A stretch of 64,000 bases of DNA from assembly GCA_003665825.1 (NCBI GenBank), contig QPFY01000018.1, positions 310,001-374,000 on the forward strand. The letters are read 5' to 3'. Below the pieces are notes generated by a model that was not told the origin of the DNA, made no database searches, and was given only the letters and a program-made list of their open reading frames with translations. This document shows, in pieces, positions 3,637-49,480 of this stretch (the stretch's first letter is position 1; each line of letters begins with the position of its first letter). Origin of the DNA: Microbotryum silenes-acaulis (Eukaryota; Basidiomycota; Microbotryomycetes; Microbotryales; Microbotryaceae). Both the position numbers and the translations under genes were made by a program.

Positions 3637-4837
3637 AAGTAGAGGAGCGCCTGTACCCGGGCAGACCACCAAAGGCGTCCCTGTACTACCGTTTTTCCTT
3701 CGTCGACAAGCAAATCTTCAACTCCACATTACAACACGCTGTTCATCATACACACAGACTTTTTTTTGCTGTTCATCTCAAGGTAGTACATAGTTTCTCC
3801 CGTCAGGAAGGCAATGACGACGACGACGACGCGGGTGGATGAAAGGCACGAGATCGCTCTCGAGCCTCACTGGTTCCGAGTCCAAACAGAAAGGATCAAA
3901 CGGTGTATTCGCAGGCGAAGAAAGACTACTGAAAGGACTAAGGTCAAGAGACGCGGCGGCGCCGCGCGCGAGGGCAAGCGTGAGGCCGCAGAGGTTGGCT
4001 CGAGGTCGTCGTGAGGCGTAAGCGGAGCGGCGCCTTACAGTGGACTCCCTTCACTTCCTCTGTCGTTTTTTCAATATTTGCCCGTACCCCAAGGACACCC
4101 CAAGATCAGCAAGAATGTATGAGCATAACGCAGAAATGGCTGCCACGCACCTGGTCATCCGTTGCCTTCTCCCTTCGCATCGGTCGATTCGCATTTGCGC
4201 TCACGTGCAGTGCAGGACATAATGACCTCCAACCATGCCTGGTCAGATGTCAGTCGTCTGTGTTATCATCGGTGGCGCCCTCCCCGAAAAGCTCGGGAGG
4301 CGAAATTACTCCGCTCGAGAAATGCTTAATTGACTAGAAATAAGGTTCACCATTATGTGAAGTCTGTGAACACCGGGCTGAGCCAATAGTTTTTCGGTAT
4401 TTGAAATGAGTTCGCCGAGGTAGCCCCTTGAAATAGAGGCCCAGAAACACGGTGCATAAGAGAAGCTCACCATGTCTCATGGAGTGATACGACGATAACA
4501 TTTAACTTGATTGCTATTTTGCTCAGAATTAAGAGTACAATGCAGATACGAGAGACGTTCTCAACCAACATTCACAAGTATTAAAACACCTGCTCATTCT
4601 ATCGCTCCAATCAAGATGAACCATTGTCATAGAGCTCACGTTCATTTCGCCATCTCATCCTCTCCCATCCCTAATATCACCCACCCCACCTTCTCCTACT
4701 TTTCGTGGCCCTCTCTTATCCTGTTCCAACTGATCCCGTTCGTCGTTGTCGACGTCGTCGCCACCATTTTTTGAATTCTCGAGTGCGACGCGTCGGAAGA
4801 CGAAATTGGGATCGAATACTTTTATTACAAGGAAGAA
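3637..4837. other. Intergenic region with a dispersed 197-bp repeat
   Basis: Beyond the 197-bp repeat at 3843-4039 I see no supported gene. A short open stretch near 4232-4330 (starting MPGQMSVVCVIIGGA) is too short and lacks family features. Confidence 0.5.
3843..4039 (+). repeat. Dispersed 197-bp repeat, copy 1 (MITE-like)
   Basis: Identical to 48223-48419 except for one base seen (ACGCGG here, ATGCGG there), although the copies lie 44 kb apart. It begins AAGGCACGAG and ends GCGCCTTACA, so the ends carry a short imperfect inverted repeat (AAGGCRC / GCGCCTT). The last 30 bases also form a small AGGCG...CGCCT hairpin. It encodes nothing recognisable. The near identity implies recent movement or conversion. 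Confidence 0.85.
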
Positions 4838-41690: not shown

Positions 41691-42410
41691 GGCACAGTAA
41701 TCTACAGTAACACAACGGGGCCTGCAGTCGTTTTCAGTACCTTACCATAAAGGTACCTCCCCTGGTTCTGGTTCGTGCGAGTGGGGAACGTTGCGATCCA
41801 TGTGGCACTTACTGCACTGCCCGTTGCAAGCCTCTGAGCTCTGAGCGAACCGCCGAGCTCAGCGGCCGCGACACATGTCCGCACATGTGCGGACACTTGA
41901 TTATAGGTCAATACATGACGATATCGTATCTTTTCGATGTCGTAGGACAAATATATAAATATTCCTAGGTTGAACCTGCAAGAAGAACATGATACGATAT
42001 GTGCTGCAAGACTTATGATGATTTCAAATTCTCATGTGCGGACCGCAGCCTCATGTGCGGACATGTGTCGGTCAAGTGTCCGCACAGGGCGGTCTGCGGT
42101 CCGCACTTGGCCCAGCAAAGTGCGGACCCATCTGGCCAAGTGCGGACCCATCCGGCCGCACTCCGAGTCCGCCTGAGAATCTCGAGCAGTTCAAAGAAGA
42201 GACATACTTGCTACTCTGTTGACTTCATGTTGTATAGGGACTTTGCTAACTAGACTTTTAGAGTTGAAGTGGATCATGAAAATGTCTCTAAAGTTGTATC
42301 ATTAGCAGGAGCGCCCACTACAAAGCTGGCCCAGAAGATCACAACGCTGCGAATTTTGAGACAGACCTATCACGCTTAGTGGTTTTTAGCATTGCTACAT
42401 CAAAGGTTCT
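41691..42410. other. Region with GTGCGGAC motif cluster at the 3' side of the Mutator-like element
   Basis: No clear gene, though the terminal exon of the neighbouring transposase gene may extend to about 42302 (a GTGAGT donor sits over its stop at 42411). The interval 41876-42147 holds eight copies of GTGCGGAC or its complement. Confidence 0.6.
41876..42147. repeat. Cluster of eight GTGCGGAC sites, including a 20-bp palindrome
   Basis: Sites at 41878-41885, 41887-41894, 42036-42043, 42055-42062, 42078-42085, 42099-42106, 42120-42127 and 42140-42147, in both orientations. The first two form the perfect palindrome TGTCCGCACATGTGCGGACA (41876-41895). One further copy is at 48615-48622, inverted, on the far side of the Mutator-like gene. 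Position and spacing suggest subterminal transposase-binding sites (inference). Confidence 0.8.
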
Positions 42411-45400
42411 CTAACTCACCGATTTGAAGCCCTCGAACAAGACGGAAGCGTCTTGCATCTTCCAGACCCCTTTTCCCTCATCAAAGGACCCGTCCAGAGG
42501 CATTGTCGACACTTTGGATGGAAGGTCGGCGAGAGCCTCGGAGTCGTAGTATAGGCCCCACAGCTCGTGCCATTGCTGGTCCAGCAGCGCATTGAACGAA
42601 GGTAGCAAGTCATATGATTCATGTTCTAGCTCGTAGAACAACATAGTCACCAATCCGTTGGTGGTCCTGTTGCCGGTTGGATAAGCGAGATGACCGCGCA
42701 TTGCGTCGAAGTGGTAGCGAGCCGCCTCTTCCCCGTAACCGACGATTGCATCCGTAGCGAAATGCTCACCGCTGAGAATGTGGCGCACCTCTGAACGAAG
42801 AGACCAGACGAGCTCCATCTGGCCCGAGACAGCCAAGCGAAGCTCACGCGGGGGTTGCTCGTGGCGAGGATACTGGTTGTTGATGTTGAATACAAGCACA
42901 CGAGGAAGCGAGGTGATCGAAACGATCTGCGTGTAAGAGCGTCCGATGCAATCGCTCTTGTGATAACCGCGCACAGTGTTTTGTTTCTCTACGTCCGCCA
43001 TTGCTGGTTGCCCAACAAGTGAGCCAAATACCTCCGACAGAGTTGGCTCGCTAAGGTTTAGGCTCAATAGTAGGACGGGCCAGTCGACGATGAAGTATCG
43101 TCTTGGCAAGATCTCAATTTGTACGCACTGACAAGCCGAGCAATAACCGGCTCGCTGAAAGTGGGTTCCGATCTGAACTCGGGCCGACGAGGTTGGCAAG
43201 TGATCCCGCGGTATTGATATTGGTATGTGGTCGACCGTAAAGGTGTAAAGCGACACGAGCCAGCTCTGCGGACGACAAGAGCGATCAGCCCAATGTGGAT
43301 TTATGGTAAGCAAAAGAATCTTGATCGACTGACCGATGGGTTGCTGTATTCCCCTCGCTTGAGTGGAGTTGTATAATCACTCTTACGTTCCTTTGATAAG
43401 ACGATCACCAAGCTGATAATCCGCTCGCGCAGCTCGAAGTACGGCATCCTTTACGGGTTTCGAATCATAGTCGTAGGCTAGCTGCGTGTATTCGCGAATG
43501 AGGCTCCAGATCTCGAGGGCCAGTGTCCGACCTTGAAGTGCGAATGTCTCCTCCATTTCCAGCTTGGCACACATGGAGGGGTTGGTGATAAAGAGGCAGT
43601 CCATGTGCATTAGCCACTCTTTCAGCCCGGTGGCGACCGAGAGCAAGCCAACCAAGGCCGAATCAAGCCAGCAGGAATGGTTGTGCCATGGACCTTGGAC
43701 AATGCCAGTCCGTTTGCTGCATTGCTGCTCGGATCGAAGCCAAAAGTCTTCGTGGAGTGTGGCAATCGTGCTGCTTTGGAGTTCGAGGGGCGTCGAGCTC
43801 GACACTGCCTTCGACGGAGATAATCCCAAGCTTGCTTGAGATGTGGATAAGGACTTGGAGTCGGCAGCTTTGGGTGGCGCGAATGCCGAATTTGGTACAG
43901 GCTGGACATGTGCCACCGCTAATTCTGACTCCGGCTTCCCTAAGGCGGCGATCATCCGTTTCCGAGGTACACGGTAGTTCTTGCCAGACGATTGGGGCTT
44001 TTCCAATAGCGCAAGAACTGTGAGGCAAGAGAGATACCGCTTTGAGTCGGGTAGGTTTTACCCCGCAGATCCGCGCTTGAGCAGTCAAATACATACATCT
44101 CGACCTCTCTTCCGTTTACTCGTTGAGCGCCCTCACTGAAAGAGGAGTCGGTCGTATTGATCGCGCCGCGCCGCTCGATGGGCGACCCGAAGATTTGGCA
44201 CGCGATTTGGAAATGGAAGCTTCCTTCGGTTTTGTGGAGCGGTCAGCCGGGCGCCTCGTCGTGCTGCACGATTCGACATGATCGGATGAGCTCCGCTGCC
44301 TTGCTTGCGTCAATTGAAGAGCAAATAAATCGTCGTCCGAATCGTCTTCATCGGATAGCGCTTGAGAAGTCATGATAGGTCCATTTTTGGAAACCGCTTT
44401 GGCCGGCCTTGACTGCGCACCGCGCAGTTTACTTTTGCTTCGCGGATCGACGGGTTGCTGCCGTGAGCGAGCTGAATCTATCGTGGTCAAATCGTCGATC
44501 TCAATCGGTGAGACTGGCATGGGCCGCGATAACGAGCTGGGCGGCGCGTTTGATGACTTGGCAACGCCTGTCTCGGGATAACGAGCAGGAGAAGCGAACG
44601 CAACTGACGCTTCTGGCATGTTGGCGTCACTGATATAAGACGAAGGCACTTCTCTGCGTTCCTTGATCTCTTTCATATGAGCGCGGGTGTTGCCTCGCTC
44701 GTGATAGGTCGAGCTCTTGACGTAGCCATCTGCAAGGACGGGATGAGAATAAAGTCAGACTCAATGGTGAAGAATGTTCTGATGCAGGCGCGCCGCACTG
44801 ACCAGCTGCATGCATATCAATGTTGTCGGTCAGATTCGCGAACTCCAGAAGCCGCATCACTCCTTCCACCGGGCCATATCGTTCGTTGCCGCACGAATGT
44901 ATCAGAAGCCAGTGCGACGATTCTACCGCATTCGTAGTGGTTGCCACACCGTTGTTTGCCGTTCCACTCAAATTCTTGAAGACCACACTTCGGATCGCCG
45001 GTCTTGTCCACCACTTGATCCAGCTTTCGGCCACGGGGAACTTGTCGATGATGAACTTGGCGAGAGTGTCAATTGCTGCATGAGACTTTGCTGCGCGCAT
45101 TGAATGGACCAGTGAGGCAAAGTGGCTGCGCTCGTCCGATTCGGCGAAATGTTTGAGTCCAAATCTTCGGACTTGCTCAATGAAGTGAAAAGCGCAACCC
45201 TTAGCCACCTTCTCACCGATCTTGATAGCCTCCGCCGTCCACTGCTTTTTCTGGGGGTCGGTCACATTGAGTAGACCCACGTCTGCGATTTTGCGTCTTA
45301 CGTACCACTCTACTACGGCTTCACGGAGACCAAGTAGTTGCGCAGCTGAATAGTCGACAACAAAGGCGACACCATTGACGATCTCGTCTACAGTGCACTT

Positions 45401-48180
45401 GCTATCGTTCAGGATCTTGAACAGTTTCAAAAAATGCTGGCGGTAGAAACTTGCTCGCTCATAGTTGCCGATGGAGTACAAGACGGGGAGCCAACGACGA
45501 ACGCTGGGCGAGTAGCAGACTGTGGCCAGTAGTACGTATTTGTCCCGGAAGAAGGTGTTATGAGCGTCGGTAGGCCACCCTATATTGCCATCAGCAGCTT
45601 GTTCGGCGATCGAGTCGATGAGTCGTTCTCGCATCAAAGGGGTCTGGATGCCAATCGACATGTCGGAGCTTGCTTTAGCGTCCGGGTCACTGCTTCTTCC
45701 TGAAATCGTTGAAACAGCCTTCCGTCTCTTCCTCTCAGGCTCGGTCTTGGCCTGCTTCCGTGGATCGGGGTCGCGGTCGGATGCGAGGAACGGATCCTCG
45801 AAACCACTGTCGTACTTGGTGTACACCACCAGCTGATGATTGACATCTGCAATCACGCGCACGACTGAGTGAAGATCATCCTGTAGGGCGCCACGCTTGC
45901 TTTGACCCACTCTTGGCGCGTGCCTGGCAATCGTCCGAGTATTGTCGTATAGTGGACAGATCTCGGAAGCGGACGGCCGGTGTCGTGGGTCGTCTGGGAA
46001 AGCAGTCATCTGGCCCATGCGTAGCTCTGCCGCAGATGCTTGGGGCGCGGCAGAGCGCAGACGTTGCAGTTGTTCCACCTATTCCGATGACGGACGAGAG
46101 ACAGGCGGATGAGGATGGTTATGGAATCCCGAATGCAAAATGAAGACCTCGCCCGGGCGATCCTTGCGTTGCGCTTGAATAATGGTTGCCGAACAAAGTA
46201 TGTGCTTCATCGGCCCGCTGCAAGCTGAAATCGGACAGAGCGGGATCTGCGATGATGTGCGCTCTACGTTCGGAGCAATCGCTTTGCGCGAGGTGAGTTT
46301 GTTGGGCGCTTCCTGTGTAGTGTCGAGCGCTTCGGCCTCCTCCCCGCGATTTGCCCTCCTTGGTACTGATATCTTTGTCGGAGGTCGACGCTTGCCACAA
46401 CAGGATCGGTCGCAACAGAGAAACACACCCAAGCAGTATCTCTTGCTGTACTTGACATACTCAACGTTCAGTTCCCGACGAGGGCCTTGCCAGACACCAC
46501 CAGAGTCGCTTCGATTGCCCGATGCTGAGAAAGACCACAGATACGACAAGCCACCATTCGACATTGGAACGGCAACGACGTCGTCCCAAGTTCCGTTGGG
46601 TCTCCATGAATCGAGAACGACCTCTCTGGGGTATTCATCGAGCATGAGGTCGGTCATCTTCATTCGTCCTTCGTTGTACTTCGGTAATTCCGGGTAGTCT
46701 CCATCTTCCGGGTCATTCGGATATTGTAGGTCGTTCGGATGGGTGTGCGATGACCGGGAGTAGCGGTGGCCATCACTTGAGGTGCGGAACTCGGCTAGTT
46801 GACGATTCTGCCGTCGCACCTCGTCGTCGGCCTCCGCTTCGACTATGGCAAAGAAGCTCGATGCTGATGCCGCCTCGCCAAGATGCAGTGTGTTTTCAGG
46901 AGTCCTGACCAGAGTGACTGTAGGCGGGGGTGTTCCAGTCCTGCCCTCATCTTGTAGAGGTGCCGCTTGCGAGCGAGCGGGGATGGAAGTGCAATGCAGA
47001 AATTGATGACGATCTTTAGGGTGCTGGTAGATCTGAGGTGACGATTAGGCGGTAGCAAGTTCAGTAAGCGAGTTGATTCTGCAAGCGTTGTTCGATGCGG
47101 AAGGGAAACAAAGACATACCCTCATTGACAGTATAGCTTCTGCTGGTAGCGTGCCGAGGTCGAGAGCGGAGCTGGTCGACTCAAGAACTTGGTCCGAGAA
47201 ATCGGCCCTGGCAGCGAACGACGCGAGCTTGACGTATCGAGAGGAGATGAAGATCTGGCTGGGAGCAAACGAGACATCGGTCTGATCGACGATGGAGTAA
47301 TCAAAGCAGGAGTCGTCTGAAGATTTGCATTGGAAGAAGTTCGTCAGCGATCTGCAGGCAAGTCATTAGGTGAATCACTCTATGATTGTCCTGCATACCT
47401 TGGAGAGCAATTCCGAGCTCGTCAGCAACCTCGTCGAGCACATGCTGAAGGTAAACGAAACGACAGGCTCCTGCTGCGAAGTTGATGGGGACAGAGGGCG
47501 TCATTCGCACCGCCACGCCAGCAACTAAGTGGCCGGAGGGAGATCGTGCTTCGACGGTCGAAACTGAGCAAGTGGAGCCCGCCACACCGTGATATCAGCG
47601 ATTTCAACCCTAATGTACAGACATTCGCTTGGAAAGTTGAAGACGTACCATTAATTCTTAGAGCAATCGATTCAGGAAAATCACGAGTGGTACTGAGGGA
47701 TGCCGAAGTCGACGCGCCTTCTTGCGGAAAAGCTGCCGATTGAGGCAATGACGACATCGTCCCCTGCGGCCGCGGTGCACCCAGATCGGTGTTGGAAGTG
47801 ATACCTTTGAATCTCAACGTCTGATTGAGCGTGTTCGTTGTTGAAAACAAAAGAGGAGATGTAGAGGTGCAAAACGGGAACGCGTCGTTGAGGATCGGAC
47901 TGGAAATAGCAACCGCATCGTCGTAATGATCGTGGCCACCGTCTTGGCCGACTTCGCTCTTGCTCACACTACGGCTTAGATCGAAACTGATACTTTGTGC
48001 CAGGTGGTTCTGTCCCTGCATTGCGAAGGTAGAGGATGAAGGTGGGGCCGGCACCGCGCCGGTCGACATCGCCGCGAGGTGGTCGCCAGCCTCAGCAGCA
48101 CAGGTGTTGTCATGATCCGCAGCTAGCCGACCCGCGAGCGGCTCGTCAAGTTCGATGGAGGCTTCTGATATGGGTGTCAA
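42411..48180 (-). pseudogene. Mutator-like transposase with WRKY-GCM1 finger, DDE domain and USP-like protease region
   Basis: One multi-exon minus-strand gene, start near 48180. The N-terminal exons are Ser-rich, followed by a conserved block (FAPSQIFISSRYVKLASFAA, about 47230). A WRKY-GCM1-type zinc finger follows (46520-46090: KRYCLGVFLCCDRSCCG, CPISACSGPMKHILC, HSGFHNHPHPP). The DDE transposase (46070-44740) has TDAHNTFF, FVVDYSAAQ, KGCAFHFIEQV and TTNAVESSHW, so D, D and E are all present; it continues over an intron into GYVKSSTYHERGN. After a charged linker (44676-44116) comes a USP-like region: Cys box GPWHNHSCWLDSALVGL (about 43690), CSACQ finger and LPRVLVFNINNQYPR with a later RYHFDAM (42920-42700). 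An in-frame TAG (46079-46081) separates finger and DDE domain, and the linker-protease junction needs a frame shift, so the copy is probably inactive. Confidence 0.75.
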
Positions 48181-48222
48181 GATCGGGTGATGCTCGAAGC
48201 TCGGTTGCTTGCGTGCTGGGTT

Positions 48223-48419
48223 AAGGCACGAGATCGCTCTCGAGCCTCACTGGTTCCGAGTCCAAACAGAAAGGATCAAACGGTGTATTCGCAGGCGAAG
48301 AAAGACTACTGAAAGGACTAAGGTCAAGAGATGCGGCGGCGCCGCGCGCGAGGGCAAGCGTGAGGCCGCAGAGGTTGGCTCGAGGTCGTCGTGAGGCGTA
48401 AGCGGAGCGGCGCCTTACA
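48223..48419 (+). repeat. Dispersed 197-bp repeat, copy 2 (MITE-like)
   Basis: Same sequence and orientation as 3843-4039, with one difference seen. Here it lies about 40 bp upstream of the start of the Mutator-like gene, in its probable promoter. Confidence 0.85.
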
Positions 48420-48647
48420 CTCTTGTGGCCAAAGATCGCCCTCGCGTGAAAGCGAGTCCTCAAGTGAACCCAGTTTCACATGGCCCCTTTGACTGTATCT
48501 GCAACTAGACCTGGAAGGAAGTGGGTATTGGGTCACTGTACCTGGAAGTGAAAGGTGGACAGGTAATTTTGGGAAGTGCGAACATCGAAAGCACAAGATC
48601 GAGTCGATATATATGTCCGCACTTATGACTCCTGCTTATATCTCATT

Positions 48648-48900
48648 TGCTTCCAACCCAATCTTCATCACCTCTTGATACGTTAAAGTCACAACGTTCG
48701 CTGCAAGGTCTAATTTTCGCGCCAAATTCATGAAAGTAGAACAGCTCCGCTCTCAACCTCGACACGCTGCCTGCCGAAGCACTGCTGTCAATGAGGGTCT
48801 GTCCTTTTTTCCGCATCAACCCACGCTCGCGAAGCGGACTCCGTTGCTGAAAATGCTGCCGTCTAATTGCCACCTCGAAGCTCAGATAAGGATGCTGAGA
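48648..48900 (+). pseudogene. Inverted fragment of a related Mutator-like gene
   Basis: Reads NPIFITS, stop, YVKVTTFAARSNF, then a segment ending CRSTAVNEGL, matching the minus-strand exon at about 47240-47010 (PSQIFISSRYVKLASFAARA...) with many substitutions, in the opposite orientation. The following bases match the adjoining intron of that gene too. It contains a stop and ends without the zinc finger, so it is a diverged remnant rather than a fresh duplication. Confidence 0.7.
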
Positions 48901-49480
48901 AAGAAAACAAATAATTGAGGATTAGAGCCGGGTGTGTCGTCCTCTCGAGGCCGACACCACTCGCGGCACGCGGAGGATCGCCATGCAGTTAGTTTTTCAG
49001 GGGTGTTCAGGGGTGTTCAGGGAGTCGTGCGTGGTTTCCCACTGGCAGAGATTGGACGGAGTGGTAGCCTCAGGCGGTCGCTTGCGACGAGAGGCTAAAT
49101 GCCAAAGAAATGGTACACCGGGAACAAGACGCCACACTGCACAGATTATCCCGCATCCGTTTTTCCTAGATTTCCTACGCCAACGGCGTTCGAGCACCGC
49201 GTTCGAGGCGCGAGGCGCGAGTGTGGCGCGTCGACCAGGTCGAGCAAGCGGGCGTCGCTGACTCTCAGCAAGCGAGAAAACCACCCGGGCCCTTCAATCG
49301 ACATGGTGCGCACTCCGAGCAAATCGCCAAAAACACTCCATGGCTACTCCATGGCTTAAGAAGAAGAATTCATGCAGGCGAGATCGTTGCCCGGAATGAA
49401 AAGTAGCTACAGGGCATCGGCCGTGACCCGCGCCGAGTAGCGTCTGCACTGCCTGACGGAAGCGAGACGATAGATGCCAG

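What the first reader, a model, noticed from the sequence alone, without database searches (positions are those of the whole stretch)
42411..48180. Mutator-like transposase carrying its own USP-like cysteine protease region
Seen: one gene order joins a WRKY-GCM1-type zinc finger, a DDE domain with D, D and E kept, a charged linker and a region with a USP Cys box (NHSCWLDSALVGL), a CxxC finger and a LPRVLVFNI strand. Known: plant Kaonashi MULEs carry a ULP/SENP protease, and WRKY-GCM1 fingers occur in Mutator transposases. Inference: a fungal element that pairs transposase with a deubiquitinase-like protease, perhaps to protect the transposase from turnover or to edit chromatin ubiquitin at target sites. 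I know of no description of this combination.
Basis: partly seen in the sequence, partly recalled or inferred. Interest (0 to 1): 0.8.

Follow-up and report, generated by a model that had tools for sequence, protein, structure and literature searches.

The report
Fungal jumping gene with fused deubiquitinase-like protease
A broken copy of an anther-smut-type fungal jumping gene whose single large protein joins the DNA-moving enzyme to what looks like a distant relative of ubiquitin-removing enzymes, a new pairing within a known theme, with the protease activity still unproven.

Summary
On the minus strand, window 48069-42411 reads as one spliced protein of about 1,700 residues: N-terminal region, WRKY-GCM1-like zinc finger, D-D-E core, charged linker, C-terminal cysteine-protease-like domain. 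It belongs to a roughly 7.1-kb element with long inverted ends, of which one sister copy has both. Two Microbotryum silenes-dioicae gene models carry finger, core, linker and protease (47-52% identity). The window copy is dead: premature stop, frameshift in the protease half, right end missing. No Pfam family (E up to 10) or solved structure matches the protease half by sequence; two AlphaFold runs failed. A profile comparison with nine of the genome's own USP deubiquitinases aligns it, and in the extended alignment puts its conserved Cys, His and Asp on the USP triad (0 of 150 shuffles did). So a divergent USP-type fold is likely, not proven; activity and substrate are unknown. Only 3 of the 15 related gene models found hold parts of both halves. 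Transposase-protease pairings are in print (Ulp1 in Mutator elements, OTU/Ulp1 in Ginger1, C19 in a Trichomonas transposase protein), so this is a new variant of a known kind. All 14 named relatives are Microbotryum; one hit has no name.

The parts
41863..42165 (+). left terminal region / inverted repeat of the element; outer end begins CGGCCGCGACACATGTCCGCACATG
   Evidence: shared by the window, C14 and C8 copies and found inverted at the right ends of C14 and C4
42411..43265 (-). last exon: protease-like domain, second half (CxxC 43131-43142, LPRVLVFNI, candidate His 42762-42764, candidate Asp 42705-42707, LFYEL), ends with stop
43387..44017 (-). exon: end of linker and Cys box (candidate catalytic Cys 43671-43673); frame shifted near 43450 in this copy, and the exon's low end is set by a first model that P0001 does not bear out
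44120..44729 (-). exon: charged, low-complexity linker
   Evidence: alignment with P0001
44803..47032 (-). main exon: WRKY-GCM1-like finger (46115-46237) and DDE core (Asp 45566-45568, Asp 45353-45355, Cys/His 45185-45196, Glu 44921-44923); premature TAG 46079-46081
   Evidence: Pfam GCM E 0.0031, below its cut-off; residues identical in P0001, P0002 and window
47120..48069 (-). three N-terminal exons (48069-47649, 47563-47399, 47316-47120); the later part is a conserved region of about 120 residues of unknown fold
48222..48223 (.). truncation point: sister copies run on to the right inverted repeat, this copy runs into a dispersed repeat of about 197 bp

Best explanation
It is a decayed copy of a Mutator-type (WRKY-GCM1-like/DDE, long-TIR) DNA transposon of Microbotryum-like fungi whose protein ends in a highly divergent USP-type cysteine isopeptidase domain. 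Shown: both halves inside one TIR element, read as one gene, arrangement present in a second species, candidate Cys-His-Asp conserved in the compared proteins. Inferred: the zinc finger binds the element ends, the DDE core cuts, and the tethered peptidase removes ubiquitin (or a ubiquitin-like modifier) from the transposase itself or from proteins at the transposon ends, raising transposase lifetime or easing repair or silencing during transposition. I hold the anatomy at about 0.88, the USP-type fold at about 0.78, active peptidase at about 0.52, and self-deconjugation as the main job at about 0.33.
For: Single spliced frame. P0001 (1561 aa) and P0002 (1513 aa) hold finger, core, linker and protease; P0009 holds part of the core plus the protease. 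Both halves lie between TIRs in copy C14, 681681 to about 688776. hhalign of the protease half against nine host USPs: score 29.05, E 0.0038 for one comparison; 0 of 150 column shuffles reached it (max 24.0), and with the same setting the Cys, His and Asp columns fell on the USP triad in the real pair but all three together in 0 of 150 shuffles. A run of the same pair with other settings gave 28.7 against at most 25.7 in 200 shuffles. Among the nine rows His is kept in 9 of 9, Asp in 9 of 9, Cys in the 5 rows that contain the Cys box. Finger-plus-DDE exon under purifying selection between the two types: dN/dS 0.22 over 508 codons.
Against: No Pfam match at E up to 10 for the protease half and no protease family for the full proteins; no PDB match; no C98 match in the genome (whose controls also stayed silent). 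AlphaFold2 failed twice (pLDDT 30.1 and 31.5). hhalign's own probability is 8.7% and the query is in effect two sequences (Neff 1.35). At hhalign's default confidence only the CxxC-to-palm stretch aligns (P 0.0048), the Cys box is a second hit at P 0.16, and the triad register needs the lowered threshold -mact 0.01. A host-USP HMM gave at best 4.3 bits, below inclusion. In the template itself Cys and His are present in 7 of 9 rows and Asp/Asn in 5 of 9. Four query rows lack the Cys box in their models, and a decayed fragment on C7 has lost the His. Only 3 of 15 related models hold parts of both halves. The Asn that USPs keep five residues before the Cys is a Trp here (recalled). No copy read in this genome is intact; no expression data; selection on the protease half not measurable on DNA.
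Confidence: 0.7

Rival explanations
1. The C-terminal domain has a USP-derived fold but is catalytically dead and serves as a ubiquitin- or protein-binding tail of the transposase.
For: Very divergent sequence with no protease family match; the oxyanion-side Asn is not kept (recalled motif).
Against: The three candidate triad residues are kept between two types at about 50% identity.
Confidence: 0.2
2. The C-terminal domain is a different zinc-containing fold or another papain-like class (OTU, Ulp1, transglutaminase-like), and the USP resemblance is a chance set of motifs.
For: Direct family and structure tests were negative; the triad register appears only at a lowered alignment threshold.
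Against: Order and spacing fit USPs: Cys box, CxxC, LPRVLV strand, His, Asp 19 residues later, LFYEL; 0 of 150 shuffles gave the triad register. Ulp1 has the order His-Asp-Cys (recalled), which does not fit.
Confidence: 0.17
3. The two halves are separate transcripts or genes that share one element, or a host protease gene lying next to a transposase.
For: The window copy is broken; the relatives are predicted models; a 14-nt exon is needed in the linker; P0005 (transposase) and P0012 (protease) are consecutive locus numbers in M. silenes-dioicae, so one copy was annotated as two genes.
Against: Both halves sit inside the inverted repeats in C14 and are joined in P0001 and P0002; no homologue outside Microbotryum was found (limited reach).
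Confidence: 0.08

Closest known systems
Kaonashi / ULP1-bearing plant MULEs (Hoen 2006, van Leeuwen 2007, not read; as described in PMC2528002 and PMC13317346, passages read)
   Same: Mutator-like element carrying a cysteine protease that acts on ubiquitin-like modifiers
   Different: Ulp1 (C48) fold, described as a separate coding gene and found in either orientation; here USP-like and in frame with the transposase
Ginger1 DNA transposons with C-terminal OTU or Ulp1 domains (PMC2836005; passages read)
   Same: protease fused C-terminally to a DDE transposase in one protein
   Different: Gypsy-integrase-like transposase, OTU or Ulp1 domain, animals
Trichomonas vaginalis XP_001314237.1, transposase_11 plus Peptidase C19 (mentioned in PMC2836005; protein itself not examined)
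   Same: USP-class peptidase with a DDE-type transposase
   Different: transposase_11 type, protist, the single example named
USP (Peptidase C19) and USPL1 (C98) isopeptidases
   Same: order of Cys box, CxxC fingers, palm strand, His and Asp; CW-D in the Cys box recalls USPL1 (from memory)
   Different: no Pfam match to UCH or Peptidase_C98; short stretch between His and the last strand

Membership tests
Mutator-like elements (MULE) | WRKY-GCM1 zinc finger before the transposase core | tested here: inconclusive
   CX4C..HXH identical in three sequences; Pfam GCM only E 0.0031, 17.9 bits against a cut-off of 25, none for P0001 or P0002
Mutator-like elements (MULE) | DDE core with CxxH between the second D and E | tested here: met
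   residues identical in P0001, P0002 and window; the layout is recalled as MULE-like, and no Pfam MULE match was seen
Mutator-like elements (MULE) | long terminal inverted repeats | tested here: met
   C14 left end matches C4 right end inverted over 296 bp at 90%; C14 right end matches C8 left end inverted over 173 bp at 96.5%
Mutator-like elements (MULE) | 8-11 bp target site duplication | tested here: inconclusive
   only C14 has both ends; no exact 8-9 bp or one-mismatch 10-12 bp duplication in the flanks searched, right flank is poly-C
USP / Peptidase C19 | Cys, His, Asp/Asn triad in USP order | tested here: met
   all three fall on the USP triad columns at -mact 0.01; 0 of 150 shuffles; by alignment only, not by structure
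USP / Peptidase C19 | match to a family profile (UCH PF00443, PF13423, C98 PF15499) | tested here: not met
   no Pfam hit at E up to 10 for the protease half; C98 search of the genome silent, as were its controls
USP / Peptidase C19 | USP fold | tested here: inconclusive
   two AlphaFold2 jobs with pLDDT about 30
USP / Peptidase C19 | isopeptidase activity | not testable with these tools
   needs enzyme assay
Ulp1 / C48 (Kaonashi-type) | C48 profile and His-Asp-Cys order | tested here: not met
   no C48 Pfam hit; Cys lies before His and Asp; the Ulp1 order is recalled

The most novel reading that the evidence does not exclude
Anther-smut fungi carry a transposon lineage whose transposase is permanently tied to an active USP-class isopeptidase that strips ubiquitin or SUMO at transposon ends to beat turnover or silencing, and in M. 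saponariae the N-terminal region plus protease travels on its own without the transposase, as an anti-silencing factor.
Probability: 0.1. Interest if true: 0.78.

Novelty: new variant of a known kind. Interest (0 to 1): 0.51.

Why it matters
Ubiquitin-family proteases are reported in several unrelated transposons (Ulp1, OTU, C19; PMC2836005), and a 2026 review says the function of the Ulp1 domain in plant MULEs is unknown (PMC13317346, passages). A case where the protease appears fused to the transposase and has a candidate triad gives a clean system: change one Cys and measure transposition, transposase lifetime and silencing.

Tried and rejected
Pfam scans of the window pieces and relatives gave no protease family; P0001 and P0002 had only weak unrelated hits (Ustilago_mating E 0.14 and 0.052, Ribonuc_L-PSP 0.16). 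NCBIfam: none for P0001; three weak hits for P0010 far under their cut-offs, the best PRK10557 at E 0.0031, taken as chance. PDB by sequence: nothing. Peptidase_C98 in the genome: nothing, controls silent too. AlphaFold2 twice: no usable model, so no fold search was run. Target site duplication beside C14: none. RIP-like TCG bias between window and C14: 5 of 46 transitions in that context against 468 of 4779 sites, no excess. One search gave the real pair out of register because I numbered the template columns differently from hhalign; it is discarded and replaced, which fixes the columns. I first took YHFDA as the His box; the alignment shows it is the Asp box and GEHF/NSHF the His box. The M. 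saponariae models P0010, P0011 and P0013 skip the transposase at one and the same junction; this can be an internal deletion or a predictor's long intron, and I could not decide without their DNA.

Full report
What is there. The gene is on the minus strand. A nine-exon reading from ATG 48069 to the stop at 42411 gives 1710 positions with one internal TAG at 46079-46081. In order it holds an N-terminal region, a CX4C..HXH finger of WRKY-GCM1 type, a D-D-E core with CxxH between the second D and the E, a charged linker, and a domain with SCWLDS, CxxC, LPRVLVFNI, GEHF, YHFDA and LFYEL motifs. Of eight pieces given to Pfam, one had a match: GCM, E 0.0031, under its cut-off.

The element. The genome G000 (29.85 Mb, unnamed) holds the transposase on six contigs in ten match rows: C18 (the window), C14, C8, C4, C9 and C21. 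The Cys half of the window's protease is found at three places (C18, C8, C14); the P0001 protease half gives twelve match rows on C18, C14, C8, C22, C7, C21 and C5. Alignment of copies puts the left end at window 41863. The right end is missing in the window: sister copies run on past 48222, while the window enters a dispersed repeat of about 197 bp. C14 has both ends, 681681 to about 688776, with inverted repeats, and no target site duplication in the flanks searched. Each copy that I read is damaged: the window copy by a stop, a frameshift and loss of the right end; C14 by a stop and an 84-bp in-frame deletion in the protease half; C8 by an insertion of about 9 kb in the protease half; C4 has stops and lacks the protease half; C9 ends before the E motif; C21 is rearranged; the C22 and C7 fragments have stops, and C7 has lost the candidate His. 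Window and C14 differ at 57 of 4779 bases, which suggests fairly recent movement.

Relatives. Three protein searches were made. With the protease half of the window protein: 3 of 7996 scored candidates, all Microbotryum silenes-dioicae. With the finger and DDE core of P0001: 8 of 6803, the query included, 7 named M. silenes-dioicae and one (P0007) without a name. With the protease alignment: 6 of 7997, four M. saponariae and two M. silenes-dioicae. The first and third scored only the candidates sharing most words, and all need shared 5-residue words, so absence elsewhere is weak evidence. Of the 15 proteins found, P0001 and P0002 hold finger, core, linker and protease, and P0009 part of the core (second D changed to N) plus the protease: 3 of 15. 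P0004 to P0008 showed none of the three protease motifs tested. P0003 joins a reverse transcriptase to the protease half; P0010, P0011, P0013 and P0014 join an N-terminal region to it; P0012 and P0015 are protease only. P0005 and P0012 carry consecutive locus numbers, so that copy was annotated as two genes. P0001 aligns with the window protein from about residue 140 of the latter. It also shows that a 43-nt stretch which I had called an intron is exon, so the window copy is frameshifted there. C9 is, by eye, of P0001's type; between it and the window the finger-plus-DDE exon has dN 0.31, dS 1.41, ratio 0.22 over 508 codons.

Is the C-terminal half a USP? Direct tests are negative. There is no Pfam family at E up to 10 for the five rows of the protease alignment, no protease family for P0001 or P0002, which have only weak unrelated hits, and no PDB sequence. 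AlphaFold2 with five and six rows gave pLDDT 30.1 and 31.5. An indirect test is positive. The genome has 28 UCH (PF00443) match rows; from nine loci (L068-L076) I put together nine USP sequences by eye and compared them with nine protease-half sequences by hhalign. Score 28.7, P 0.0048; none of 200 column shuffles reached it (max 25.7). The reversed query gave P 0.097 and the transposase core P 0.78. At default confidence only the stretch from CxxC to the palm strand is aligned, with the Cys box as a second hit at P 0.16; a host-USP HMM gave at best 4.3 bits, below inclusion. With fixed columns and the lowered threshold -mact 0.01 the score was 29.05 (E 0.0038, probability 8.7%) against at most 24.0 in 150 shuffles. 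The USP Cys, His and Asp columns then met the Cys (SCW), His (NSHF/GEHF) and Asp (YHFDA) of the family: Cys in 5 of 5 rows with a Cys box, His and Asp in 9 of 9 rows. The other four rows (P0011, P0013, P0014, P0015) lack the Cys box in their models; P0011 and P0013 are out of frame there. Shuffles had all three in register in 0 of 150, two in 9, one in 43, none in 98. The template's own columns have Cys and His in 7 of 9 rows and Asp/Asn in 5 of 9. His to Asp is 19 residues, followed by an LFYEL strand as in USPs (USP spacing and end strand are from memory). I therefore think a divergent USP-type domain likely, and an active one about as likely as not.

How it may work. From the anatomy: the finger would bind the element ends and the DDE core would cut and join. 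The linked peptidase would act where the transposase acts. The simplest job is removing ubiquitin or a ubiquitin-like modifier from the transposase itself. The main alternative is action on repair or chromatin proteins at the ends; a link to DNA repair was proposed for Ulp1 and OTU domains by the Ginger authors (PMC2836005, passages). None of this is shown.

What is known. PMC2836005 (passages) reports Ulp1 in Mutator transposons of hydra, lancelet and plants, OTU or Ulp1 at the C-terminus of Ginger1 transposases, and a Trichomonas protein with transposase_11 and Peptidase C19. PMC2528002 and PMC13317346, passages only, describe Kaonashi and other ULP-bearing MULEs. In PMC12730594 (passages), on fungal transposons with a TET/JBP enzyme, protease and ubiquitin have no hit. 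In PMC10502011 and PMC4469406 on Microbotryum, term searches of the main text found no MULE, Mutator or ubiquitin. Ten full-text searches listed no paper that by title or abstract start describes a USP-type protease fused to a Mutator-type transposase; most listed papers were not opened, and subscription papers are mostly absent from the library. The result is a new variant of a known kind.

Noticed in passing
window 48641-48876: A 76% identical, inverted fragment of the element's own 47035-47277 lies just beyond the truncated right end.
   Followed up: partly
window 48223-48420 and 3843-4039: Dispersed repeat of about 197 bp with sharp ends; the genome search with window 48223-48930 gave 43 match rows, the query's own place included.
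   Followed up: partly
P0010, P0011, P0013 (M. saponariae): Three gene models join the N-terminal region directly to the linker and protease at the same junction, without finger and DDE core: an amplified internal deletion or a predictor's intron.
   Followed up: partly
P0003 and P0007: Gene models that run a reverse transcriptase into the protease half (P0003) or carry integrase-type Pfam domains beside the transposase (P0007): probably nested insertions.
   Followed up: no
P0001 residues 1-125; window 47120-47650: Conserved N-terminal region of about 120 residues with no Pfam match; its pattern looks to me like a beta-grasp (ubiquitin-like) fold, by eye only.
   Followed up: no
L056-L059 (C13, C3, C32, C11): Isolated 33-35 bp copies of the element's outermost left end without the rest: possible excision footprints or tiny elements.
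   Followed up: no
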